A stretch of DNA of 52,946 nucleotides, from assembly GCA_903835685.1 (NCBI GenBank), contig CAILNX010000027.1:1-52946 (forward strand). Reading direction: 5' to 3'. Below, one piece after another: positions 1-17,478 of the stretch. Position 1 is the stretch's first letter, and the number at the start of each line of letters is the position of its first letter. A program made the position numbers and the translations under genes. This DNA comes from an uncultured delta proteobacterium. Its GTDB lineage: Bacteria; Desulfobacterota; Desulfovibrionia; Desulfovibrionales; Desulfovibrionaceae. The notes below the pieces were generated by a model. That model did no database searches. It saw nothing but the letters and a program-made list of their open reading frames with translations, and had not been told where the DNA came from.

Positions 1-768
<768 letters not shown>

Positions 769-769
<1 letters not shown>

Positions 770-864
770 TGAAATACGATGCGGACTCGACGCCCGGGAC
801 CGTGGCCGACTCCGGTTTGCTTGGAAGTTCCTCGGACTCGTCCGGCGCGTCGTCAACGGGGTGA
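769..864 (+). pseudogene. C-terminal tail of an unidentified protein, 5' part lost at the CRISPR junction
   Basis: From the first base after the intact part of the last repeat, a plus-strand frame reads VKYDADSTPGTVADSG and continues Ser/Gly-rich to a TGA at 862-864. The GTG at 769 is half repeat sequence and has no ribosome binding site, so this looks like the 3' end of a longer gene whose upstream part was removed. The stop lies three bases before the ATG of the next small ORF, as in phage or island operons. The family is not recognised. Confidence 0.35.
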
Positions 865-1293: not shown

Positions 1294-1751
1294 GATTTCC
1301 TCCGAACTTTGGATTGTTGAGATTCCAGGACCGCTACCCGCTCTGCCAGGTCCGCAGTCTCGACGGCCTTCCGATGTGATTCTACTAGTGATGCAAGGGC
1401 CTGACCTTCGCCGGGAGTCAGTTCACCACCAGCCACGGCCTGGGTGATCGCCCCTGTCACCCGGGGCAGGTCCGCCAGAGTTTCGAAGGTGGGCAGGTCG
1501 ATAGACAGGGGGGCCTCGCGCCGGGGTGGAGCCAGCCTTTCGAGGCACAGCCGCATGGCCGTGGTATCGCCCCCCAGGGCCATTTCGACGGCCCGCCGGG
1601 TCAATGCTTCGGCCTCACCATCCAGGAGCGTTAGAACGGCTACCGTGGCCTTGTGGCGTGACCCCAATGGACGGCCCGCAGGATTACCACTTTGGCCTGG
1701 CTGGAATGGACGCCCGGGGCTTTTCTGTTTTCGCGTTGTTTTGTCAGCCAT
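1290..1751 (-). CDS. DUF5681 domain protein (terminase-small-subunit-like)
   Basis: The 153-aa product begins with the DUF5681 signature, a basic Gly/Pro-rich segment (FQPGQSGNPAGRPLGS, about residues 16-31), followed by a helical domain. DUF5681 proteins occur in prophages and islands beside terminase-like genes and are thought to bind DNA; the biochemical role is not established. The start at 1751 is chosen because GGAGGTG lies 7-8 bases upstream and the domain begins soon after; longer versions have no such support. It overlaps the 3' end of the nuclease gene by 8 bases and the downstream gene by 4. The C-terminal third (residues 110-150) is predicted coiled coil. Confidence 0.85.
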   Translation of the reverse strand: MADKTTRKQKSPGRPFQPGQSGNPAGRPLGSRHKATVAVLTLLDGEAEALTRRAVEMALGGDTTAMRLCLERLAPPRREAPLSIDLPTFETLADLPRVTGAITQAVAGGELTPGEGQALASLVESHRKAVETADLAERVAVLESQQSKVRRKS

Positions 1752-2256
1752 GATCTTCACCTCCATATTCTGCTTGTCCCTGGCCGTGAGCCTTAACGAT
1801 GGAGGCCCACCGCTTCTTTGCTTCTCCCAAGTATTGTTTGAGGAATCCCCAGGCCGCGTACTCTCCGGCCGTCCTGGACCCGGCGAAGATGAACGGAGTG
1901 CGATACCGGGCCGTGAACGCCAAGACACTTTGACAGGCCGCGTGAGGCTTCAGGGCGCTTTTGTAATTGCCCTGGGCCAGGTCCGCCCATGAGGCTTCGA
2001 CCACCACGGCGAAGGCATCCAGGGCCACACCCCGTTGAAGCTCGCGCACGAACCGCTCTCGCTCCCGGCCGAGGCAGGCCACCAAGTCTCCGAGTTCCTT
2101 GCGCTCGACGGCCACCTTGTCGATCAAACCGGCCAATAAGTAATCGCCCACGGTCAGGGTTCCGGGCTGGACAATGGCCGCGTACTTCTCATGGGCAAAG
2201 GCGTAGGGCCGCTGTTCTCTGGAATCCGCGACGATGGTCATCATTGCCGCAGTCAT
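1744..2256 (-). CDS. ERCC4-type (XPF/Mus81-like) nuclease
   Basis: This 170-aa protein carries the ERCC4 nuclease core: an early acidic strand with DSREQ (VADSREQRPYAF, residues 9-20), then VAVERKELGDL near residues 48-58. The latter fits the V-x-E-R-K-x3-D signature that binds the metal ion in XPF/Mus81/Hef nucleases. The family cuts branched DNA such as flaps or stalled forks. The protein is a stand-alone nuclease domain without helicase or helix-hairpin-helix parts, as often found in phages and islands. Its ATG at 2256 overlaps the upstream stop by 4 bases. With the primase-like gene three positions upstream, a role in processing replicating island DNA is likely. This is inference. Confidence 0.85.
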   Translation of the reverse strand: MTAAMMTIVADSREQRPYAFAHEKYAAIVQPGTLTVGDYLLAGLIDKVAVERKELGDLVACLGRERERFVRELQRGVALDAFAVVVEASWADLAQGNYKSALKPHAACQSVLAFTARYRTPFIFAGSRTAGEYAAWGFLKQYLGEAKKRWASIVKAHGQGQAEYGGEDHG

Positions 2257-2558
2257 TGGAGCCACCGCCCTTCCTGATCCCTGAACTTCCGGCAGAAGTA
2301 GAGGGCGGATAAATCGCAGGACGGGCAAGAAGTGCAGTCCTCCCAATACCCGGCGCACAACCTGGCGTATCTGTCCTTCGGGTGCTCGGCCTGGGCTTCC
2401 ATCTCGGCCAGGATCGCCGCCTTGTTTGCCCTGGCGTAGTCCACAACGACCCGGGCCTGTCCGACCGGGAGGGAGCCAAGCCCCAACAACTTCAATTCCC
2501 CATCTGGAGAACGCACCACTTGGACTCCGTGGGCATGAAGGAGGTCGGACGCGCTCAT
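2253..2558 (-). CDS. Small protein with TubC_N-like N-terminus and cysteine cluster
   Basis: In this 101-aa protein residues 5-52 (LLHAHGVQVVRSPDGELKL then helices ending NKAAILAEM) resemble the TubC_N fold seen at the start of many phage and island replication proteins. The second half has an aromatic/Cys cluster (CAGYWEDCTSCPSC, later YFCRKF) that could bind zinc. The gene overlaps its neighbours by 4 bases on both sides, so it is translated together with the primase-like protein and the nuclease. A protein-docking role in replication is plausible but unproven. Confidence 0.75.
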   Translation of the reverse strand: MSASDLLHAHGVQVVRSPDGELKLLGLGSLPVGQARVVVDYARANKAAILAEMEAQAEHPKDRYARLCAGYWEDCTSCPSCDLSALYFCRKFRDQEGRWLQ

Positions 2559-4966
2559 AGCACCACCTCGTCGCCAGGATGTTCATAGTCGGGATAGAGA
2601 GCCAGACCCTCCAGGGGAATATCCTGTGCGACCCAGGTGAGAGAGTCCATTTTCTGTCCGCTCCCATGCGAATTAAGCGAAGAAAGCGAATTAAGGTCGG
2701 GGGTGGGGAGGCTTATTTCGCTTAATTCGCTTTTTTCGCACAGACTGAACCTCGTTTTGGGCCTGCCTCCGGTCTGTTCTTGGGTGACAAGCACCCGACC
2801 GTCCCCGGCCAAAGCCTCCAGAGTGGCCTTGAGACGATCCGCGTTGTAGTGGTTGCCCAGGGCATTATGCAGTTCGGTTGTGGTCCTCGGCCCCCCCTTG
2901 AGCGCGTCCAGGACCTTCTCTGCAATCGGGTCGGCCTCACGCTCACCAAAGATGAGTTGTGCGGACTCGCGGCAGTATCCCCAGAAGGCCAGGGCCGACG
3001 CCAGGTGGTTGGTGCTGATACTGTCCTGTCCATCCAGGAGGGCGTAGATCATGGCCAGCCGAAGCGTTTGGGCCTCGCCACGGTTGATGATGCACCCGGA
3101 CAGGCCGGGGTGCGCCCTGGACAATTCCGGGTAGGCCGATTCCCACATGACGCGGACATCGTTCCCCATGGTGATCCTGCCCCGCCCCTGGGCCAACCGG
3201 ATCAGCCGCAACACCTCCCGGCGGATATGGTTAATCTCCACTTCCTCCATGGGCTGGGGGAAGGGCACAAGCCTCTGTCTCCGGGAGCAAACCCAAAGGA
3301 ATCGATTCCCAAATCCGTTGAGTACCTGGACGTTATCCAACATATCTTTGAGTTCAGCGATGGTGATATGCGCGACCAGACACACATTGGCCCCCGTGGT
3401 TTTGATCCGGTTCGACTTCGTGAGGGGGCTCACGTCTCCATCGTCCCACAAGCACCGCATGGTAGTGGACAAGGTATTACCCGTCCTTTTCGTGCTATGG
3501 AGCGCGGCGGCCAGTTCCTCATCCAAAACGAACAGGCGCTTGTCTGTTTCCCCAGGATCAGAGACAACCCAGGCACCGTCTTCGCCCGGCTGTTTACCGA
3601 CCTTCCACTCCTTCACCTCATCGCGGACGGCGAAGACCAGACCCTCACCGGAAGAGAGAGGACCAGGGCTGGTGGTTGCCGGGGTGTAGGTTTCATCATC
3701 GAAGGTGAAGAGCTTCTTGGTCGGCTGGGCCGAGGTCCCTTTTCGGGACTTCGCGCTGTCGCCCACGATGCAGGCGAATAACCTCGGCTTGTGCCTGCCG
3801 TCCCCCACCATAAGGGAGGGGCCAGCCCCGGGTGCATGTCCGCTCACCTCGGCCCCGAATCGAGTCAGGAATGTTGCCAGGACGGCAGCGGGATCAGCCT
3901 CACTATTGCGGGTCGCCAAGCGCACGAAGTCGCCCACGATCCCGGGCATGGCGCGTTCGGACAGTTTTGGCCAAGTCTTCGTGGCAGGTGCCCATTCGTC
4001 GTCCAGGCACATTGTAGGTCCTGGGATGTCAGCCTTAACCATTGGAGGCTCTGACTGGGTATCAATGGCCTTGGCCTGGGCCAGTTGCGCCTTGACCACC
4101 TCAATGCTCTCGGCCACCATCAAATCATTGAAGTCGGACCCGGCCCCGTCGATATCGGCGAACAAGGGGAAGACCACCATGGCATTGATCGCCCGGGCCG
4201 CCGCAGTCGCTTCCGTCCTGCCCGGATTGCCTTTCGTGCGCAGGTCGTCGTCGCCAGCAATGATGATCTCTCGCTTGGGATACTTCTCTCGGGCCAGCCG
4301 GGCCACGGCCAGAAGATTGCCGCAATCCAGGGCAACCAATACCGTTCCACCCGTGGCGAGGTGGATACTTGCGCCTGTGGCGAATCCTTCGACCACAAAC
4401 AGGCGGTCCTTGTCTCCGGCAATGACCCCGAAGTGTCCCGCCTTTTTCATGCCAGACAAAAACCGCTTGTTCCCGTCCTCAAAGATGCGCTGGAGCCCCT
4501 GGACCCTCCCGCACACGTCCATCAAGGGCAGGAGCATGGCCCCGTCCTGGCCCACCCGCACACCACCAAGAGGGGGGATGCCCTTCTTTTGGAGATAGGC
4601 ATGGTCTTCTGGGCAGGGTGACGCGGCCTTGAGAATTTCTCGGGCCTTGGCCGCTGCTTCTGCGTTGCGCTCGGCTTGAGCCTTCTCCCGGGCGGCCCGG
4701 TCGGCTTCTATCCTGCACTTAAGCTTGTCTTTCTCGGCCTGGGCAAGGGGCGCACCATTGGTCGCGGTCCAGGTCTCGCTTGTGCCCGTCCGCCAGTTGC
4801 CGAAAGCACCACTGGCCGGATGATCTCCATGGAAGGTGTACCACCCATCTCGGGATTGAGGTTTGTCCAGAGTTCCGCAACGCTGAAGGGTCCCATCGCC
4901 CGCGACTTCTCCGGGAAGTAGCCCGGCCCGCTCTATCTCCTGTCGGAAGGCGTTCATGGCATTCAT
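2555..4966 (-). CDS. Toprim / DUF3987 primase-helicase-like replication protein
   Basis: The 803-aa product contains a Toprim domain of the phage P4-alpha type at about residues 190-290. Visible parts are LFVVEGFATGASI (catalytic Glu) and IIIAGDDDL (acidic cluster), preceded by the usual PLMDVCGRVQGLQRI. Residues 320-730 match the DUF3987 type found next to Toprim in mobile elements, with a P-loop-like GDSAKSRKGTS. The C-terminus has a winged-helix-like segment. Such proteins are thought to prime and unwind DNA for autonomous replication. I see no zinc-binding N-terminus. The ATG at 4966 is one of two near-adjacent Met codons. Together with the integrase, this makes the island likely able to replicate after excision. 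Confidence 0.9.
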   Translation of the reverse strand: MNAMNAFRQEIERAGLLPGEVAGDGTLQRCGTLDKPQSRDGWYTFHGDHPASGAFGNWRTGTSETWTATNGAPLAQAEKDKLKCRIEADRAAREKAQAERNAEAAAKAREILKAASPCPEDHAYLQKKGIPPLGGVRVGQDGAMLLPLMDVCGRVQGLQRIFEDGNKRFLSGMKKAGHFGVIAGDKDRLFVVEGFATGASIHLATGGTVLVALDCGNLLAVARLAREKYPKREIIIAGDDDLRTKGNPGRTEATAAARAINAMVVFPLFADIDGAGSDFNDLMVAESIEVVKAQLAQAKAIDTQSEPPMVKADIPGPTMCLDDEWAPATKTWPKLSERAMPGIVGDFVRLATRNSEADPAAVLATFLTRFGAEVSGHAPGAGPSLMVGDGRHKPRLFACIVGDSAKSRKGTSAQPTKKLFTFDDETYTPATTSPGPLSSGEGLVFAVRDEVKEWKVGKQPGEDGAWVVSDPGETDKRLFVLDEELAAALHSTKRTGNTLSTTMRCLWDDGDVSPLTKSNRIKTTGANVCLVAHITIAELKDMLDNVQVLNGFGNRFLWVCSRRQRLVPFPQPMEEVEINHIRREVLRLIRLAQGRGRITMGNDVRVMWESAYPELSRAHPGLSGCIINRGEAQTLRLAMIYALLDGQDSISTNHLASALAFWGYCRESAQLIFGEREADPIAEKVLDALKGGPRTTTELHNALGNHYNADRLKATLEALAGDGRVLVTQEQTGGRPKTRFSLCEKSELSEISLPTPDLNSLSSLNSHGSGQKMDSLTWVAQDIPLEGLALYPDYEHPGDEVVL

Positions 4967-6336: not shown

Positions 6337-7392
6337 TCACCCATTCGAGGTCTTGGCCCAAACCGCATCGCGGCCGGGGTTCAGACAGCGGACCAGTCCT
6401 TTTTTCTTGAGTCCAGCCAGGACCAGTCGAATTGTTGCGTGGCTCACGCCCGGACAAGCCTTTTCCAGGGCCGCCACCTGGAATTGGCCGGGCATCCGGT
6501 CCAAGGCCGCCAGGACTGCCGCCTGTTTGGCTCCCCTGGCCGAAGTCAATTCCCCAGCCCGGCCCTCCATCTCCCGGTAGGAGGACAGGAGGACCACGCC
6601 CAGGAAGTATTCCCACCAGGGTGTCAGGTCGTGCTCTCCTTCATGCCAGCCCTGGGAGGACTGGTGAAGGGTGTCGTAGTACCCCTCCCTGTGCTGCTCC
6701 ACGACGTGCTCCAGGCTGATGTACCTCCCGACCTCGAACCCGGCCCGGTAGAGGAGCAGGAGGGTCAGGAGCCGGGCCATGCGGCCATTGCCATCCAGGA
6801 AGGGATGGATGCACAGGAAGTCCAGGACATAGGCCGGGATCAACAGGAGGGTGTCCACCTGCCCGGCTGTCCAGGCCGCCTCGAACCGGTCATGCAGGGC
6901 GTTCATGGCCTCGGGCGTCCGATGCGCGGGTAGGGGCTTGAACCGGACGAACTGGCTTCCGTCCGGCATCTTCTCTATGATGTCGTTGTCCGCGATCTTC
7001 CACCGACCTCCATCTCCCGGGGCGAACTTGAACAAGTCCCGATGGAACTGGAGGACTAGGCCGGGAGTAAATGGGATGTCCTCGTGGTGGTGATGGATGG
7101 TGGCCAGTACGTCACGATAACCGGCGATCTCCTGTTCCGAGCGGTTGCGGGGAGTGGTCTTCTGGCTCACCAGGGCTCGGATGCGTCCGAGCGGGGCCAC
7201 GACACCCTCCAGCCGGTTCGAGGACTCCGCGCTCTGAATGATGGACGCCTCCCGCAGGGTCTTGAGGACCTGGGGGGACTGCTTTTGGAACATCTCCTGA
7301 CGGCCCTTGTGCTCTCCCAACAGCCGGATGGTGCGAAGAAGCTGGGGGGATATCGGCTGGGCCTCAATGAAGCCAGGCTTGAAAGAGTTCAT
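6337..7392 (-). CDS. Fic family protein (adenylyltransferase-like)
   Basis: The 351-aa product has the complete Fic motif HPFLDGNGRMAR (His196 catalytic, Asn202/Gly203/Arg204 for phosphate binding). The inhibitory helix S-x3-E-G (Ser58-Glu62-Gly63) lies in the N-terminal domain, so it is a class II, self-inhibited Fic protein. Residues 290-351 form a winged helix that ends GLKKKGLVRCLNPGRD. Fic enzymes usually transfer AMP to a hydroxyl of a target protein; the target here is unknown. The start overlaps the integrase stop by 4 bases, so the two are translated together. A degraded homologous 3' end lies at 9102-9207. As a toxin-like or defence cargo of the island it is plausible. Confidence 0.92.
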   Translation of the reverse strand: MNSFKPGFIEAQPISPQLLRTIRLLGEHKGRQEMFQKQSPQVLKTLREASIIQSAESSNRLEGVVAPLGRIRALVSQKTTPRNRSEQEIAGYRDVLATIHHHHEDIPFTPGLVLQFHRDLFKFAPGDGGRWKIADNDIIEKMPDGSQFVRFKPLPAHRTPEAMNALHDRFEAAWTAGQVDTLLLIPAYVLDFLCIHPFLDGNGRMARLLTLLLLYRAGFEVGRYISLEHVVEQHREGYYDTLHQSSQGWHEGEHDLTPWWEYFLGVVLLSSYREMEGRAGELTSARGAKQAAVLAALDRMPGQFQVAALEKACPGVSHATIRLVLAGLKKKGLVRCLNPGRDAVWAKTSNG

Positions 7393-8651
7393 GCCGCCCC
7401 CCCTACCCTGGCCCGGAGGATTCGCGCCACCTTCTTGTTGGCATTGTCCACCCCCAGGCTCTTTTCCAGGGCGCGGACAGCGGCATGGCGCTGGTTGTCG
7501 CCGACGTGGGAATACCGTTCAGTCATCTGGATCATCTCGTGCCCCATGAGTTCCTTAACCACGTACAGGTCCACCCCGGCCGCCACCAACTGGCTGGCGT
7601 AGGTATGCCTCAACGAATGGAATACTACCCTCTGCCTGGTGTCGGCAACGTCGTCGTTGAGGCCGAGGGCCTTCACCACCCGATCAAACGTGGTGGAGAT
7701 GGCCACAATCTGCTTCCCCTTCTTGCTCGGAAAGACCAAGGCGGACTTATCGCCCCGAGACTTGGCCTCAAGCATGTCCTTGGCGTCGCCAGTCAGGAAG
7801 GCCACTCGGGTACGCCCGTTTTTGGTGTTCAGGAGGGTCAGCAAGCCCCGCTCCATGTCCACGTCGGCCCAGGTCAGGCGGAAGACCTCGGACGCCCTGG
7901 CCCCGGTACGCAGGGACAACAGGACCACCTCGTACACCTCCTGGCTCTTGGCCTTGAGCGCGGCCAGAAGCCGGTCGGCCTCCTCGCTGGTCAGGAACCG
8001 GAGCCGCCGGTTGTCGAACTTGGGCTTCTTGGTCTTGGCCGTGGGGGACAGGCACTCGGTCAGGCCGTGGTCCCGGGCGAAGTTGAACACCTGGCGGACC
8101 ACGCACACGGCGTAGTAGACGGTCCTCGGCCCCACCCCGCCGTCTGCCATGGCCCGCTTGATCCTCTCCACGTCGAAGGGGCTGACGGTCTTGAGGGGCT
8201 TACCCGCAATGACCGGGGCTATCCACTTCTGGTACAGACCCCGCTCGGTGACGTAGGAGTTGCGCTTCTTGTTCGCCAGGGTGTGGGGCAGGTAGTGGGC
8301 GTCGAAGATGCTACCGAAGGTGACGGCCTCCTGGGCCTGCGCTGCTTTTTGCGCCTCCTGTTCCAGCCGTAGGACTTCCGCAGCCGCCCGCTTGGCCGCA
8401 TTCTCCCGCTTGGGCGTGACCGGCCCGCTTCCCTGTTTGGCGTTCTCAATCAGTTCCAGGCGTTTCAGGTGGGCGGCCTCTTCTGTCCACCCACCACTTT
8501 CCCACCCCAGGACTGCCTCGAACCGTTTCCCGGCCACCGCGTAACGGATGCCAAAACACCGGTCAAAACGGACCCCGTTCTTTCGGGTGGGATGGGCATA
8601 CCACCTGACCCCGGAAAACTTCTTCGACTTCTCCCATTTCGGCTGCGCCAT
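7389..8651 (-). CDS. Tyrosine recombinase (site-specific integrase)
   Basis: This 420-aa phage-type integrase has an N-terminal arm-binding region (residues 1-70), a SAM-like core-binding domain (about 115-205) and a catalytic domain containing LRTGARASEVFRL (first Arg), HSLRHTYAS (His-x-x-Arg) and LMGHEMIQMTERYSHV (His and the nucleophilic Tyr). It covalently cuts and joins DNA at the attachment site. It lies 161 bases from a tRNA-Pro fragment, as expected for the enzyme that inserted the island there. A promoter region with tandem 11-bp repeats precedes it, and it reads away from the attachment site into fic. Confidence 0.96.
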   Translation of the reverse strand: MAQPKWEKSKKFSGVRWYAHPTRKNGVRFDRCFGIRYAVAGKRFEAVLGWESGGWTEEAAHLKRLELIENAKQGSGPVTPKRENAAKRAAAEVLRLEQEAQKAAQAQEAVTFGSIFDAHYLPHTLANKKRNSYVTERGLYQKWIAPVIAGKPLKTVSPFDVERIKRAMADGGVGPRTVYYAVCVVRQVFNFARDHGLTECLSPTAKTKKPKFDNRRLRFLTSEEADRLLAALKAKSQEVYEVVLLSLRTGARASEVFRLTWADVDMERGLLTLLNTKNGRTRVAFLTGDAKDMLEAKSRGDKSALVFPSKKGKQIVAISTTFDRVVKALGLNDDVADTRQRVVFHSLRHTYASQLVAAGVDLYVVKELMGHEMIQMTERYSHVGDNQRHAAVRALEKSLGVDNANKKVARILRARVGGAA

Positions 8652-8669: not shown

Positions 8670-8691
8670 TTTCCCACCACTTTCCCACCAC
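8670..8691. repeat. Tandem 11-bp repeats, probable integrase arm sites
   Basis: TTTCCCACCAC occurs twice in direct tandem (8670-8680 and 8681-8691) between the integrase start and the tRNA-Pro fragment. Tandem short repeats here are typical arm-type binding sites for the integrase N-terminal domain. A related pair with the same 11-bp period lies on the other side of the att core at 8916-8937. Confidence 0.5.
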
Positions 8692-8812
8692 TTTTTCGAG
8701 GAAGCAGGGGGTTTCTAAGTGATGGACCGTGAGAGGGAGATACCCAGGAAGCCATACTGCGTCAAGCTTTTAGTGTATGCCTGTGATGGATCGTGAACAC
8801 CGGAAAAACTGA

Positions 8813-8859
8813 ATGGGGTTCAGGGGGCCGGAGGTTCAAATCCTCTCATCCCGACCAGC
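8813..8859 (+). mobile_element. Attachment site: 3' part of tRNA-Pro(GGG), copy 1
   Basis: The sequence covers the anticodon loop (ATGGGGT, anticodon GGG), 3' anticodon strand, variable loop, T arm (GG-AGG-TTCAAAT-CCTCT) and acceptor strand CATCCCG-A-CCA of a tRNA-Pro. The bases to the left (only CTGA fits) do not make the 5' half, so it is not a functional tRNA gene. The same 47 bases recur exactly at 11080-11126. This is the attR-type end produced when an element inserts into a tRNA gene. Confidence 0.85.
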
Positions 8860-8867
8860 AAATGCCC

Positions 8868-8905
8868 AAGGGCTTACAGTCGAAAGGTTGTGAGCCCTTT
8901 TTCTT
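8868..8905 (+). terminator. Intrinsic terminator after att copy 1
   Basis: AAGGGCTTAC (8868-8877) pairs with GTGAGCCCTT (8890-8899) and is followed by TTTCTTTC. It would end transcription entering through the tRNA fragment. A closely related hairpin sequence follows the P460 gene at 11867-11902. Confidence 0.75.
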
Positions 8906-8915
8906 TCAGATGTTT

Positions 8916-8937
8916 TCTCTCCCCACTCTCTCCCCAC
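8916..8937. repeat. Tandem 11-bp repeats on the far side of att copy 1
   Basis: TCTCTCCCCAC is present twice head to tail (8916-8926 and 8927-8937). It resembles the 8670-8691 pair in length, tandem order and CCCAC core. This is compatible with arm sites belonging to a second, neighbouring element. Confidence 0.4.
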
Positions 8938-9101
8938 TTTCTGCGTGACGAGGTGACCTTCCCCCCGCCAGGTATCCCAGTTAGAAGTTCGTGACAACGG
9001 CCAAGGAGGTCGAAGTCATGAGGAAGAGTCGATTCAAGATGGATCGCGACTTCCATGCCGGGGCCGGGGGAAATGTGTTCACACATTCAAAATGAGCGCA
9101 T

Positions 9102-9207
9102 TCACTCCATCGGAGTCTTGGTCCAGGTGGCATCTCTACCCGGGCGAAGGCAACGGACCAACCCTTTCTTCTTGAGTCCGTCCAAAACCCGACGAATGAG
9201 GTCATGC
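9102..9207 (-). pseudogene. 3' remnant of a second fic gene
   Basis: The minus-strand reading LDGLKKKGLVRCLRPGRD followed by TWTKTPME and a stop matches the C-terminal winged helix of the intact Fic protein at 6337-7392 (LAGLKKKGLVRCLNPGRD). Sequence just past the stop is also similar between the two places (GGGCCGGGGGAAATGTG at about 9060 and 6278). Homology ends near 9207. The Fic catalytic domain is gone, so this is a fragment of a deleted paralogous element. Confidence 0.75.
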
Positions 9208-9215
9208 CAAAACAC

Positions 9216-9240
9216 TGGACAATTTGTTCTATTTTGTCCA
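9216..9240. promoter_or_regulatory. Inverted repeat upstream of the agmatinase-like gene
   Basis: TGGACAA (9216-9222) and TTGTCCA (9234-9240) form a 7-bp inverted repeat with an AT-rich centre, about 135 bases before the start codon. It may be an operator or part of a promoter. The right half belongs to a 14-bp sequence repeated in inverse orientation at 10449-10462. Confidence 0.35.
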
Positions 9241-9375
9241 ATGTTGTTCCATAAGCGCGAAATAGGAACCGTGCCTGGACCTTGGAGGCCCGGGGCGGCC
9301 GGGGCATGATCTCCACCCGTGGGGGGCTCGGGGACAATGCTCCGGTATTGTGGGAACACGAAGCCAGGAGGACTC

Positions 9376-10356
9376 ATGAAACATCTCGAAGGCGACGAGT
9401 TGATGCAACGCATCGGTTCCTACAGCAAGAATTTCAATGCCCGGACGTATGCCGGGATTGCCACATTCTTTCGGTCCAACTGGTGTGAAGACCACTCGCA
9501 GCTCGACGTGGCCCTTGTCGGCCTGCCCTGTGACGCCGGACTCACCCAACGCACGGGGGCTCGCCACGGTCCGCGGGAAATACGCAACCAATCCTGCAAT
9601 ATCCTGTATTATAATCCTCTGACCAAGGTCATCCCTTACGAAATGGCCCGCATCGGCGACATCGGCGACGTGCCGCTGGATAATGTTTTCGATCTAGAAA
9701 AAATTGTGGCTGAAATCCATGCCTTCTACCGGACCCTGCACGCTGAAGGCATCGTTCCAGTGACGGCGGGTGGCGACCATTCCATCACGTATCCCATACT
9801 CAAAGCCTTGGGCGCGGACAGACCCGTGGGCCTCGTGCACATTGACGCGCACATCGACGCTACCGGCGAAATCGGCGGCAGCACCTTGCACCACGGCGCT
9901 CCATTCAAGAACGCCGTTGATTGCGGCGCCCTGGATCCCAAGCGTACCGTGCACATTGCCATCCGTGATCCAGCCATGCAGTTCGAACAATTCGCCGTCG
10001 AAACCGGACAGACCATCATCGATATCAACCGATTCTACGATTTGGGGGTTGACGGAGTCATCGACGAAACCCGGAAAGTGATAGGCCCTGGCCCCGCCTA
10101 CGTCACCTTCGACGCCGACGCGCTTGACCCCGCCTATGCCCCGGGCACCGGAACACCCGTGGTGGGCGGCATCACCACCTATGAAGCCAAGCGGCTGTTG
10201 CAGGGGTTGCGTGGCCTGGACATTGTCGGCGGCGACGTGGTCGAGGTGTCCCCGCCCTTTGATACCGGCGGCATCACCGCCCTGGCGGGGGCCCAAATGC
10301 TCTTTGAGATTCTTTGCCTGGCGGCCGAGGCCTTTGGGAAGCGGGCCAAGGGCTGA
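9376..10356 (+). CDS. Agmatinase/arginase-family ureohydrolase
   Basis: The 326-aa product has all six manganese ligands of the ureohydrolase family: His135 (GGDHS), Asp157, His159 and Asp161 (DAHID), and Asp246 and Asp248 (TFDADALDPAYAPGTGTP). The family hydrolyses a guanidino group to urea plus an amine; agmatine, guanidinobutyrate or related compounds are possible substrates. The GTGTPVVGG loop is agmatinase-like rather than arginase-like. The ATG at 9376 has AGGAGG five bases upstream; a longer frame to 9319 lacks a site. It is the only intact gene between the two tRNA-Pro fragments, so it may be cargo of an eroded element. No polyamine pathway partner is adjacent. Confidence 0.92.
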   Translation: MKHLEGDELMQRIGSYSKNFNARTYAGIATFFRSNWCEDHSQLDVALVGLPCDAGLTQRTGARHGPREIRNQSCNILYYNPLTKVIPYEMARIGDIGDVPLDNVFDLEKIVAEIHAFYRTLHAEGIVPVTAGGDHSITYPILKALGADRPVGLVHIDAHIDATGEIGGSTLHHGAPFKNAVDCGALDPKRTVHIAIRDPAMQFEQFAVETGQTIIDINRFYDLGVDGVIDETRKVIGPGPAYVTFDADALDPAYAPGTGTPVVGGITTYEAKRLLQGLRGLDIVGGDVVEVSPPFDTGGITALAGAQMLFEILCLAAEAFGKRAKG

Positions 10357-11079
10357 TCCGCCTTGTCTGGATACGCTGAAGGAAATGATCCAAAGAGTTC
10401 AAGACAATCGACCCAGTAACCCGCGCCAATCCAAGAGGTTGCACCACAAACATTGGACAAAAGGATACGCGAGCGGGTCAGAGACGCACGGCCCCAATAC
10501 TCCGAATGCGGAGACAAGAAAAAGACTGCTCGGGGGACACCTTGCGGCATCCCCCACCATTTTCACGGAGACCGTACCTGAAAGCTCTTTGACCAAGCAC
10601 ACGGCCGGGCCACCAGATTCCCCTATGGTCTTCGTAAAGGGCTGTTGCGCTTCCAGGTCGCCTCAGACGAGTACGCCTTTCCGGATCCTCGAGGCGAAAG
10701 AGTGGGGGAACCTTTACAAGGCTATTTCTCTATCAATGGGGCGAATATCCAAAAAAATGCCCGGCTCCGCCTGCGAAGACCATGGGAGGCAGAATCACCA
10801 TGGCCACCCCCTCGGGTGCTTTCTGGCATCCATGGAATCCGTATCAATTTTTGTAGGGGCTTGTTTCGGCCAGGCGCTTGAGACCATACAAAAAGCGTGT
10901 CTGGCAGGGGCCTTTTTAGACTTGGGTGAGGGGCAGAGGGGGGACGAGACGGACTGCCAGTCGAATGGATAACATCAAGAGAACCTATTCGCCGCTCGCC
11001 CATCAAAACCTAGAGGAAAGTTGTTATCCACTACATGAAAATATTCAATTATTTCATCCAACCAGATTACGCTCCAGGC
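10357..11079. other. 723-bp stretch without a convincing gene
   Basis: Short overlapping frames exist on both strands (for example about 10722-11006 minus and 10645-10881 plus), but none has a ribosome binding site, recognisable family or operon context. Visible structure: the AACATTGGACAAAA arm at 10449-10462, a small stem CTCCG-AATG-CGGAG near 10500, and GGGGGA...TCCCCC near 10535-10560. AT content rises toward 11079. It is probably decayed mobile DNA. Confidence 0.5.
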
Positions 11080-11126
11080 ATGGGGTTCAGGGGGCCGGAG
11101 GTTCAAATCCTCTCATCCCGACCAGC
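11080..11126 (+). mobile_element. Attachment site: 3' part of tRNA-Pro(GGG), copy 2
   Basis: This is an exact 47-base duplicate of 8813-8859, again lacking the 5' half of the tRNA. To its right, chromosomal-looking genes and terminators begin. It is the likely outermost right boundary of the tRNA-Pro insertion hotspot. Confidence 0.85.
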
Positions 11127-11317: not shown

Positions 11318-11854
11318 ATGATATCCAACGTGGTGCGCTGGCTGGCCGGGGCCTCATTCCTCCTGGCCGTGACGGTCGGTATGGCCCTGGGCCAGGGGGG
11401 CGCGGGCAAAGTCGCCCCGGCCCCGAACGGCATCGTTTTTTACCCGGACTACCCCAACTGGCGCGTCCTGGCCGTCTCGCACCGCGAAGACAACAATTCG
11501 CTGCGGACCATCCTGGGCAACGATGTGGCCATTGCGGCCGCCCGGGCCGGGAACACCAATCCTTGGCCGGATGGGTCGGTGCTGGCCAAGGTTTCCTGGA
11601 AGCGCGTCCCCCTGGACGCCTTTCCCGGAGCTTTCGTGCCCGGTGATTTCATGCAGGTCGAATTCATGCGCAAGGACAAGGTGAAGTTCGCCGCTACCCT
11701 GGGATGGGGTTTCGCCCGCTGGAAGGGCATGGACCTGGTCCCTTACGGGAAGGACGCCTCCTTTGCCCAGGAATGCGTCGCCTGTCATACGCCGGTGGCC
11801 CAAAGTGATTTCGTCTTCACTCATCCGGCGCGCCTTGGCGGGGGTGGGAAATAG
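11318..11854 (+). CDS. Cytochrome P460 family protein
   Basis: The 178-aa product has a signal peptide (residues 1-25, cut near GMALGQ), so it is periplasmic. The body follows the cytochrome P460 pattern, with FYPDYPNWRVLAVSHR near the start of the mature protein and a C-terminal c-type haem site CVACH (about residues 148-152). P460 cytochromes oxidise hydroxylamine or detoxify nitrogen oxides and cytochrome c'-beta members bind NO; which activity applies here cannot be told from sequence. AAGGAG lies 9 bases before ATG. The gene stands alone and is followed by a terminator. Confidence 0.88.
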   Translation: MISNVVRWLAGASFLLAVTVGMALGQGGAGKVAPAPNGIVFYPDYPNWRVLAVSHREDNNSLRTILGNDVAIAAARAGNTNPWPDGSVLAKVSWKRVPLDAFPGAFVPGDFMQVEFMRKDKVKFAATLGWGFARWKGMDLVPYGKDASFAQECVACHTPVAQSDFVFTHPARLGGGGK

Positions 11855-11866
11855 AAGCCAAAGCCC

Positions 11867-11902
11867 AAGGGCTTACCGTCGAAAGATGGTAGGCCCTCTT
11901 TC
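11867..11902 (+). terminator. Intrinsic terminator of the P460 gene
   Basis: AGGGCTTACC pairs with GGTAGGCCCT and is followed by CTTTCTTTT. It starts 12 bases after the stop codon. It shares its arms and the GTCGAAAG loop sequence with the terminator at 8868-8905. Confidence 0.8.
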
Positions 11903-11993
11903 TTTTCCCGGGTTTTGTCCATCCCTGACCAGGCTTGACGGGTCATGAGCCCGGGCTTAGGCCGGAGGGAGGTCAGACCAGGAGGACGCCCTC

Positions 11994-12869: not shown

Positions 12870-13322
12870 ATGCACATCTACGCCGATGCCGACGCCCTGC
12901 CCGGGGCCATCAAGGAGATCCTCTTCCGCGCGGCCCTGCGGCGGGGGCTCGGGCTGACCCTGGTGGCCAACAAGACCCTGCAAGTGCCCACGTCGCCGCA
13001 TATTTCCACCATCCGGGTGGGCCAGGGCTTTGACGTGGTGGACGCGGCCATCGTGGAGATGGTCAAGCCCGGGGACCTGGTCATCACCGCGGACATTCCC
13101 CTGGCCGCCCAGGTCATCGCCAAGGAGGCCCACGCCCTGAACCCTCGGGGCGAGCTGTACACCAAGGACACCATCCAGAGCCGCCTGACCATGCGCAACC
13201 TGCTCGCGGAACTGCGCGGCGGCGGGGTGATCACCGGCGGGCCTGCGCCCCTCAATAACCGCGACCGGGAGAACTTCGCCAACCAGTTCGACATCTTCCT
13301 GACCCGCCAGGCCCGGGGGTGA
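12870..13322 (+). CDS. YaiI/YqxD family protein (UPF0178)
   Basis: The 150-aa product starts with [10 protein letters not shown] and contains [13 protein letters not shown] and a C-terminal [13 protein letters not shown], all landmarks of UPF0178. The fold is PIN-like: conserved Asp residues near the N-terminus and in the TADIP motif suggest metal binding and nuclease-type chemistry, but no activity is firmly established. Length is normal for the family. It stands alone between the hydrolase and a repeat-containing gap. Confidence 0.9.

Positions 13323-13614: not shown

Positions 13615-17478
<3,864 letters not shown>

What the first reader, a model, noticed from the sequence alone, without database searches (positions are those of the whole stretch)
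8813..11126. Two identical 47-bp tRNA-Pro(GGG) fragments without an intact tRNA: stacked insertions at one hotspot
Bases 8813-8859 and 11080-11126 are identical and both cover the tRNA from anticodon loop to CCA, each preceded by non-tRNA sequence. An integrating element leaves one such 3' fragment at its far end, so two fragments imply two tandem insertions, with the whole tRNA further left outside the window. The island at 1.0-8.65 kb ends at the first copy with its integrase beside it. The second interval (2.27 kb) keeps only a fic stump and an agmatinase gene.
Basis: partly seen in the sequence, partly recalled or inferred. Interest (0 to 1): 0.65.

Follow-up and report, generated by a model that had tools for sequence, protein, structure and literature searches.

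The report
Stacked mobile elements behind one tRNA
Two identical stumps of a proline tRNA gene mark where mobile DNA elements inserted one behind another at the same spot in what is probably a sulfate-reducing bacterium; the newest carries a whole CRISPR immune system, and the piece between the stumps looks like fused scraps of two older elements.

Summary
Observation confirmed; mechanism largely confirmed. The 47-bp repeat is exact. The window is a whole contig, and the predicted intact tRNA-Pro(GGG) lies on contig C16. C16 ends, and the window begins, inside a type I-C CRISPR array whose repeat was found nowhere else in the genome at up to 3 mismatches. Element A therefore runs from the intact tRNA to copy 1: at least 18.7 kb, with complete CRISPR-Cas I-C, primase, Fic and integrase.

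A's two ends carry the same 22-bp repeat. Its three closest integrase relatives in other genomes sit beside the same tRNA fragment, and G166 shows the empty site of the sister element in G024.

One correction: the 2.27-kb interval is probably not one element. Its left end is integrase-Fic type (unpaired repeat, fic tail); its right flank resembles another attachment family in relatives. I infer at least three insertions, two decayed and fused by deletion.

Tandem accretion in tRNA genes is known. The fresh part is the element family: sister elements at this tRNA carry CRISPR-Cas I-E, viperin-like and caspase-like genes, or a CHAT-domain gene.

The parts
1..782 (+). Trailer end of a type I-C CRISPR array: 11 full repeats GTCGCCCCCCTCGCGGGGGCGTGGATTGAAAC and a degenerate last one that starts at 751; cas genes and the other array end are on G000:C16
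1290..1928 (-). DUF5681 protein of element A
   Evidence: PF18932, E 1.7e-13
1744..2667 (-). ERCC4-type nuclease, phage-like (ORF as listed; the real start is probably internal)
   Evidence: phrog_3490, E 1.7e-19
2555..4966 (-). Toprim primase / DUF3987 helicase-like protein of element A (the DUF3987 match is below Pfam's cut-off)
   Evidence: phrog_2249, E 2.5e-79; PF13362
6337..7392 (-). Fic-domain protein, overlaps the integrase gene by 4 nt
   Evidence: PF02661, E 6.5e-14; the same int-fic overlap in G024, G081 and G129
7389..8651 (-). Tyrosine recombinase (integrase) of element A, one open frame; R, HxxR, H and Y motifs present
   Evidence: PF00589, E 1.1e-32; motifs located (which residues are catalytic is recalled)
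8673..8694 (+). Right-end repeat of element A (CCCACCACTTT twice), presumed arm site; identical left-end copy at G000:C16:116666-116687
8809..8857 (+). tRNA-Pro(GGG) 3' fragment 1 (nt 29-77); overlaps repeat copy 8813-8859; junction of element A and the next element
8860..8906 (+). Terminator-like hairpin, seen by eye, that came in with the element to the right of fragment 1 (inference)
   Evidence: sequence
8917..8940 (+). Left-end repeat of a second integrase-type element (B1), unpaired; same motif as at both ends of the tRNA-Arg(ACG) element on C30
9061..9197 (-). Remnant of B1: region downstream of fic and about 34 codons of the fic C-terminus
   Evidence: D6, 80%; 71.6% over 102 bp
9319..10356 (+). 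Agmatinase / arginase-family gene (start possibly the ATG at 9376)
   Evidence: PF00491, E 1.6e-78; TIGR01230
10940..11079 (+). Right-end flank of a third element (B2), like the flanks of nt 33-77 fragments in relatives; TGGATAAC-type repeat at 10966-10984
11080..11124 (+). tRNA-Pro(GGG) 3' fragment 2 (nt 33-77); overlaps repeat copy 11080-11126
11318..11854 (+). Cytochrome P460 gene right of the array (flank); no match in the other 58 of 59 genomes searched
   Evidence: PF16694, E 1.3e-36

Best explanation
The 3' half of tRNA-Pro(GGG) is the attachment site of several tyrosine-integrase elements, with the crossover in or next to the anticodon loop. Each incoming element brings its own copy of the tRNA 3' half plus a terminator, restores the tRNA, and pushes the old 3' half to its far end. 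If insertions enter at the restored tRNA, the youngest lies nearest to it. The order here is: intact tRNA (contig C16), element A (CRISPR-Cas I-C, primase, Fic, integrase; apparently complete), fragment 1, remnant of an older integrase-Fic element (B1: left end and fic tail), agmatinase, remnant of a still older element of another attachment family (B2: right end only), fragment 2, chromosome. B1 and B2 were probably fused by a deletion that also removed the fragment between them. Shown: the repeats, the tRNA, a unique shared CRISPR repeat at the two contig ends, matched ends of A, an empty site for a sister element. Inferred: order in time, the deletion fusion, that the end repeats are integrase arm sites, present mobility of A.
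For: Exact 47-bp repeat; intact tRNA on C16. The CRISPR repeat occurs only at the C16 end and the window start, all 14 full copies in one orientation, none for the reversed control. 22-bp end repeat: 4 places in 3.94 Mb at up to 3 mismatches, two at the ends of A and two at the ends of a tRNA-Leu element, 0 for the reversed control. Left and right ends match at 17-20 of 20 bases in 7 of 7 intervals that carry this integrase type, off-diagonal mean 13.9, 95th percentile 16.75. Integrase homologues: 33 of 36 loci have a tRNA 3' fragment starting at nt 26-34 upstream of the gene; 27 of 36 have an exact 9-bp repeat at period 11, at most 2 at any other period from 6 to 23. Empty site: G024 1-1778 = G166 539-2316 (96.8%) and G024 15025-15207 = G166 2251-2433 (97.8%), so the 13.3-kb sister element of G024 is absent in G166. 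For B: the left motif is unpaired (3 places, the other two are both ends of the tRNA-Arg element); own-end match 13 of 20, at background; right flank resembles nt-33 flanks in 5 of 6 cases and none of 5 integrase-type flanks.
Against: No congener is held, so the empty site was shown for a sister element, not for this locus. The sequences after the tRNA and after the nt-33 fragment in G166 are nearly alike: both match the sequence after fragment 1 of G024 at 97.8% over about 178 bp; what fixes the place is the left flank (1.8 kb) and 6.9 kb further right at 94.3%, with 2.5 kb in G166 that G024 lacks in between. The C16-window join rests on a unique repeat and complementary array ends, not on reads. 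End repeats are not unique to one element: A-left matches Leu-right, and G081-left matches G024_1-right, at 20 of 20. The end-matching score does not detect the nt-33 class (G024_2, G156, G166, G144 score 13-15) nor six other intervals (13-14), so B's low score counts only together with B's integrase-type left motif and the flank test. One of the 6 nt-33 flanks (G156) did not match. No excision product was observed.
Confidence: 0.72

Rival explanations
1. Only two insertions: element A, and one older element that decayed to 2.27 kb and keeps both of its own ends.
For: Exactly two fragments in the window. Simplest count. Decayed elements that keep their att sites (CIMEs) are described as the usual partner in tandem accretion (PMC5704250, passages).
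Against: The two ends of the interval do not match each other (13 of 20). The left motif has no partner. The right flank resembles the other attachment family. The interval between the two tRNA-Arg(ACG) fragments in the same genome does have matched ends. None of these alone is proof, because intervals of the nt-33 class also fail the end-matching score.
Confidence: 0.22
2. The fragments arose by duplication of the tRNA 3' end or of a segment, without integrase.
For: The two copies are identical in sequence.
Against: The left flanks of the two copies are unrelated (copy 2 against the copy 1 flank: 467 of 500 shuffles score as high), and the right flanks differ. The integrase sits next to copy 1, as in 33 of 36 homologous loci. 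Fragments begin at the anticodon stem-loop in relatives too: 17 of the 22 partial matches of at least 90% identity reaching the 3' end that I took from the listing start at nt 26-34 (the listing was cut, and one row at a contig edge was dropped).
Confidence: 0.02
3. Contigs C16 and the window are not neighbours, so the CRISPR-Cas genes belong to another place and element A is shorter.
For: The assembly has a gap there; no read evidence was available.
Against: The repeat is found nowhere else; one side has the cas genes, the other the degenerate array end; the same 22-bp repeat lies at both outer ends; same orientation relative to tRNA and fragment.
Confidence: 0.04

Closest known systems
Tandem accretion of integrative elements and CIMEs at a tRNA or other gene end (review PMC5704250, passages seen)
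   Same: Elements with unrelated ends piled at one site, the older one decayed, sharing the target-derived direct repeat
   Different: The reviewed cases concern ICEs and IMEs with conjugation functions. No relaxase or conjugation gene came up among the element A proteins that I scanned (not every ORF). The interval here seems to be a fusion of two elements, not one CIME.
tRNA-targeted genomic islands of the Islander type (PMC4383910, passages seen)
   Same: Regenerated tRNA at one end, displaced 3' fragment at the other, tyrosine integrase, anticodon-centred site (2083 of their islands)
   Different: Islander calls a tandem only if each member has its own fragment and integrase, so this array would probably be counted as one island. 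They list 125 tandems of two or more and 4 of three or more, beside 3919 islands.
P4-like satellites with anti-phage hotspots (PMC9122126, abstract start and passages seen)
   Same: Integrase, primase-helicase and defence cargo
   Different: [quoted passage not shown] Element A has at least 18.7 kb and a complete type I-C system. No satellite packaging gene was seen, but none was searched for specifically.
CRISPR-Cas systems on Vibrio mobile elements (PMC6360697, abstract and outline seen)
   Same: Whole CRISPR-Cas systems carried on mobile islands
   Different: Other hosts and elements; here related integrases at one tRNA carry type I-C in one genome and I-E in another.

Membership tests
tRNA-integrated genomic island (Islander definition) | Intact tRNA at one end and same-strand 3' fragment at the other | tested here: met
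   (across one assembly gap)
tRNA-integrated genomic island (Islander definition) | Integrase gene inside the island | tested here: met
   7389-8651, PF00589
tRNA-integrated genomic island (Islander definition) | Empty site in a relative | tested here: inconclusive
   Shown for the sister element (G024 against G166); no congener held for this genome
Tandem accretion of elements | Two or more element ends between the tRNA and the last fragment | tested here: met
CIME (decayed element with both of its att sites) | Both ends belong to the same former element | tested here: inconclusive
   Ends do not match, left motif unpaired, right flank of another family; but the end-matching score also misses nt-33-class intervals, so this leans to 'not met' without proving it
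Type I-C CRISPR-Cas system | cas3, cas5c, cas8c, cas7, cas4, cas1c, cas2 and array | tested here: met
   NCBIfam models for Cas5c, Cas8c, Cas7, Cas4, Cas1c, Cas2 and the Cas3 HD domain above cut-off, Cas3 helicase core below it; Cas3c by PADLOC, E 9e-223; array
P4-like phage satellite | Primase-helicase and integrase | tested here: met
P4-like phage satellite | Capsid-hijacking or packaging genes and a helper phage | not tested
   No such family came up in the PHROGs scan of 9 element A proteins, but this was not a dedicated search

The most novel reading that the evidence does not exclude
In this family (probably Desulfovibrionaceae) related integrase-Fic elements use the anticodon loop of tRNA-Pro(GGG). 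They keep a fixed integrase-Fic end, while the tRNA-proximal slot swaps whole defence systems: CRISPR-Cas I-C here, CRISPR-Cas I-E in G129, viperin-like plus caspase-domain genes in G024, a CHAT-domain protein in G081. A wider integrase family keeps the same geometry (tRNA fragment, 11-bp-period repeat, int) on many different tRNAs. The repeats at the two ends of an element match, so that they can serve as end labels by which fused and decayed elements in a tRNA array are told apart and counted.
Probability: 0.5. Interest if true: 0.6.

Novelty: new member of a known kind. Interest (0 to 1): 0.45.

Why it matters
Counting tRNA fragments, the usual way to count stacked insertions, undercounts once elements have decayed and fused. 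The paired 11-bp-period end repeats give a further label for each end, and on this array they turn two apparent insertions into probably three. The array also shows a complete adaptive immune system on an integrative element whose sisters at the same tRNA carry other defence genes, so immunity in this family may in part be a matter of what last landed behind tRNA-Pro(GGG).

Tried and rejected
Cytochrome P460 (11318-11854) as a core anchor for an empty site failed: found in 1 of 59 genomes, our own. The YaiI/YqxD gene (12870-13322) was found in 21 of 59 genomes including our own. I compared its place with that of tRNA-Pro(GGG) in seven of these: on another contig in G005, G009, G028 and G031, on the same contig but 0.7-1.4 Mb away in G024, G043 and G058. 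It gave no synteny. dsrA, just upstream of the tRNA here, was not found within the flanks (up to 1.5 kb) of the 29 tRNA loci from other genomes that were tested. Genes right of the last fragment gave no convincing common core with this genome, only histidine-kinase similarity. In genus g10, the sequence after the G129 fragment resembles that after the tRNA of G073 and G009 for only about 110 bp beyond the CCA, and the sequence after G129's own tRNA matches about as well, so I do not call an empty site there.

The terminator at 11856-11905 resembles the one after copy 1 (84% over 50 bp). I considered a third attachment-site remnant there, but saw no tRNA letters or repeats beside it, so I left it as a similar terminator.

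CRISPR spacers: the 13 spacers between full repeats, compared with all loci in hand, gave 3 self-hits and one 16-nt match (to two overlapping loci). The array against the phage collection gave one record, not followed up.

No tree of the integrases was built; that the tRNA-Pro(GGG) users are the nearest relatives rests on rank (the three best matches in other genomes). The next ones, at about 49-51% identity, use other tRNAs (L083 Asn, L084 Lys), and G027 and L069, at 42-44%, use tRNA-Pro(GGG) again. The primase of element A had no match among the 140 genes of the relatives' intervals and of C16, so I do not claim a shared primase.

On this tRNA-Pro site in Desulfovibrionaceae the listings of searches of the held library showed nothing that I recognised as describing it. 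That is not proof of absence.
Full report
Bases 8813-8859 and 11080-11126 are identical. Copy 1 matches nt 29-77 and copy 2 nt 33-77 of tRNA-Pro(GGG). No intact tRNA is in the window. The window is the whole of contig C27 of a 65-contig, 3.94-Mb genome. The host is probably a member of the Desulfovibrionaceae. It is placed in the same family as G064, whose contig C99 has the same length (24467) and the same integrase identity (49.4%) as the Desulfovibrionaceae record JAVHLG010000053.1, and dsrAB lie just upstream of the tRNA.

It is on contig C16 at 116530-116606, plus strand, 9.9 kb before the contig's end. Those 9.9 kb hold a gene with a weak IrrE-like peptidase match (below cut-off) and a full cas operon: cas3, cas5c, cas8c, cas7, cas4, cas1c, cas2. 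They end in a CRISPR array. The window begins in an array with the same repeat. In the whole genome the repeat occurs 14 times in full, 3 at the end of C16 and 11 at the start of the window, all forward. The cas side is on C16 and a degenerate last repeat is in the window. The simplest reading is that the assembler broke one array in two. The element from the intact tRNA to copy 1, here called A, has 18,722 visible bases plus the gap.

The two ends of A carry the same label. A 22-bp direct repeat, CCCACCACTTT twice, lies about 60 bp after the tRNA on C16 and 21 bp before the integrase start in the window. It occurs four times in the genome. The other two copies are the two ends of an element in tRNA-Leu(CAA) further left on C16, whose integrase is 43-44% identical. 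The reversed control pattern has no match.

This geometry is general for the integrase family. Among 36 loci with homologous integrases, 33 have a tRNA 3' fragment that starts at nt 26-34, 133 to 319 bp before the gene. By best match the targets are tRNAs for Pro, Lys, Asn, Arg, Thr, Ala, Phe, Leu and Met. 27 of 36 have an exact 9-bp repeat at a period of 11 bp upstream of the gene; no other period from 6 to 23 reaches more than 2. The three misses for the fragment are L095, L096 and L111. The tRNA library was from this genome only, so a miss may be a target that was not in it. The three best matches in other genomes (G129, G081, G024) sit at tRNA-Pro(GGG), and so do L069 and G027 at 42-44% identity. 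Others at about 49-51% use other tRNAs, and I built no tree. G129, G081 and G024 share the 4-nt int-fic overlap with element A; G027 has no Fic match.

The mechanism is shown directly on a sister element. G024 and G166, one genus, are 96.8% identical over 1.8 kb up to and through the tRNA. G024 then has a 13.3-kb int-fic element and the fragment nt 29-77. What follows that fragment is 97.8% identical to what follows the intact tRNA in G166 over 183 bp, and after 2.5 kb found only in G166 the two run together again for 6.9 kb at 94.3%. G166 thus gives the empty site for that element. A caution: in G166 the sequence after its nt-33 fragment is almost the same for 178 bp, so the flanks, not those 178 bp, fix the place. 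Both genomes share that further fragment, nt 33-77, to the right, so G024 is itself a stacked array. G144 (one broken and one full fragment) and G015 (two fragments downstream on the same strand) look alike. In this genome tRNA-Arg(ACG) also has two fragments, both on C30, with the intact gene on C34; that link between contigs was not tested.

Right of copy 1 there is a terminator-like hairpin and then CTCTCCCCACT twice (8917-8940), a repeat of the integrase type. It occurs in three places in the genome, the other two being both ends of the tRNA-Arg element. It has no partner in the interval. Next comes the fic tail, similar to the end of A's fic gene. Left of copy 2 the flank is of another kind. 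It resembles the flanks of the nt 33-77 fragments in G024, G144 (two places), G166 and G132 (0 or 1 of 500 shuffles as good), not G156 (103 of 500), and none of five integrase-type flanks. Comparing left and right ends of 18 intervals, the seven with this integrase type match at 17-20 of 20 bases, the off-diagonal mean is 13.9, and this interval scores 13. Two limits: some elements share a motif, so cross-pairs such as A-left with Leu-right also reach 20; and the score misses the nt-33 class and six other intervals (13-15). It supports the claim only together with the motif and flank evidence. The reading that fits best is a fusion of the left end of one element and the right end of another, with the fragment between them lost. 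That makes at least three insertions.

Cargo. In the four related elements at this tRNA, the tRNA-proximal part holds CRISPR-Cas I-C here, CRISPR-Cas I-E in G129 (Cas3e, Cas8e, Cas7e, Cas6e, Cas1e), a viperin-like protein (E 2.7e-30) with a caspase-domain protein in G024, and a CHAT-domain protein in G081, whose AAA and most TPR matches are below cut-off. G129's interval is 45 kb and holds many other genes, so it may be composite, though its two ends match 20 of 20. CRISPR-Cas on mobile islands is known (PMC6360697, abstract). P4-like satellites are said to lack systems of that size (PMC9122126, passage).

Place among known kinds. Tandem accretion with decayed partners is established (PMC5704250, passages). 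Anticodon-centred sites are the larger class in Islander (2083 against 1836), where tandems of three or more number 4 beside 3919 islands (PMC4383910, passages). The find is a well-resolved new case with an informative family, not a new principle. That the end repeats bind the integrase is inference from position and period; 'arm site' is used on that basis and from recall.

Noticed in passing
G000:C30:125913-125958 and 132838-132884; G000:C34:16578-16654: tRNA-Arg(ACG) has two anticodon-loop-to-CCA fragments on C30 and its intact gene on C34: probably another stacked site in the same genome, with a 6.9-kb integrase element with matched ends between the fragments.
   Followed up: partly
G000:C16:100416-109270: An element in tRNA-Leu(CAA) next door carries exactly the same 22-bp end repeat as element A although its integrase is only 43-44% identical and uses another tRNA; a further short Leu fragment (89.7% over 29 nt) lies at C16:97832-97860.
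   Followed up: partly
L166:2346 to its end (G129:C28, from 141345): The sister element at tRNA-Pro(GGG) in G129 carries type I-E cas genes in the slot where element A carries type I-C.
   Followed up: yes
window 11856-11905: A terminator 84% identical over 50 bp to the one after copy 1, without tRNA letters beside it.
   Followed up: partly
window 1-800 against MT836291.1: A record called Bacteriophage sp. from human faeces matches this CRISPR array stretch at 70% identity (41% covered); possibly a related array on a phage-labelled contig.
   Followed up: no
window 2668-2739: Inverted repeats of 19-20 nt (GCGAATTAAGCGAAGAAAGC and partner), 90-95% complementary, inside the 3' end of the primase gene of element A; meaning unknown.
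   Followed up: no
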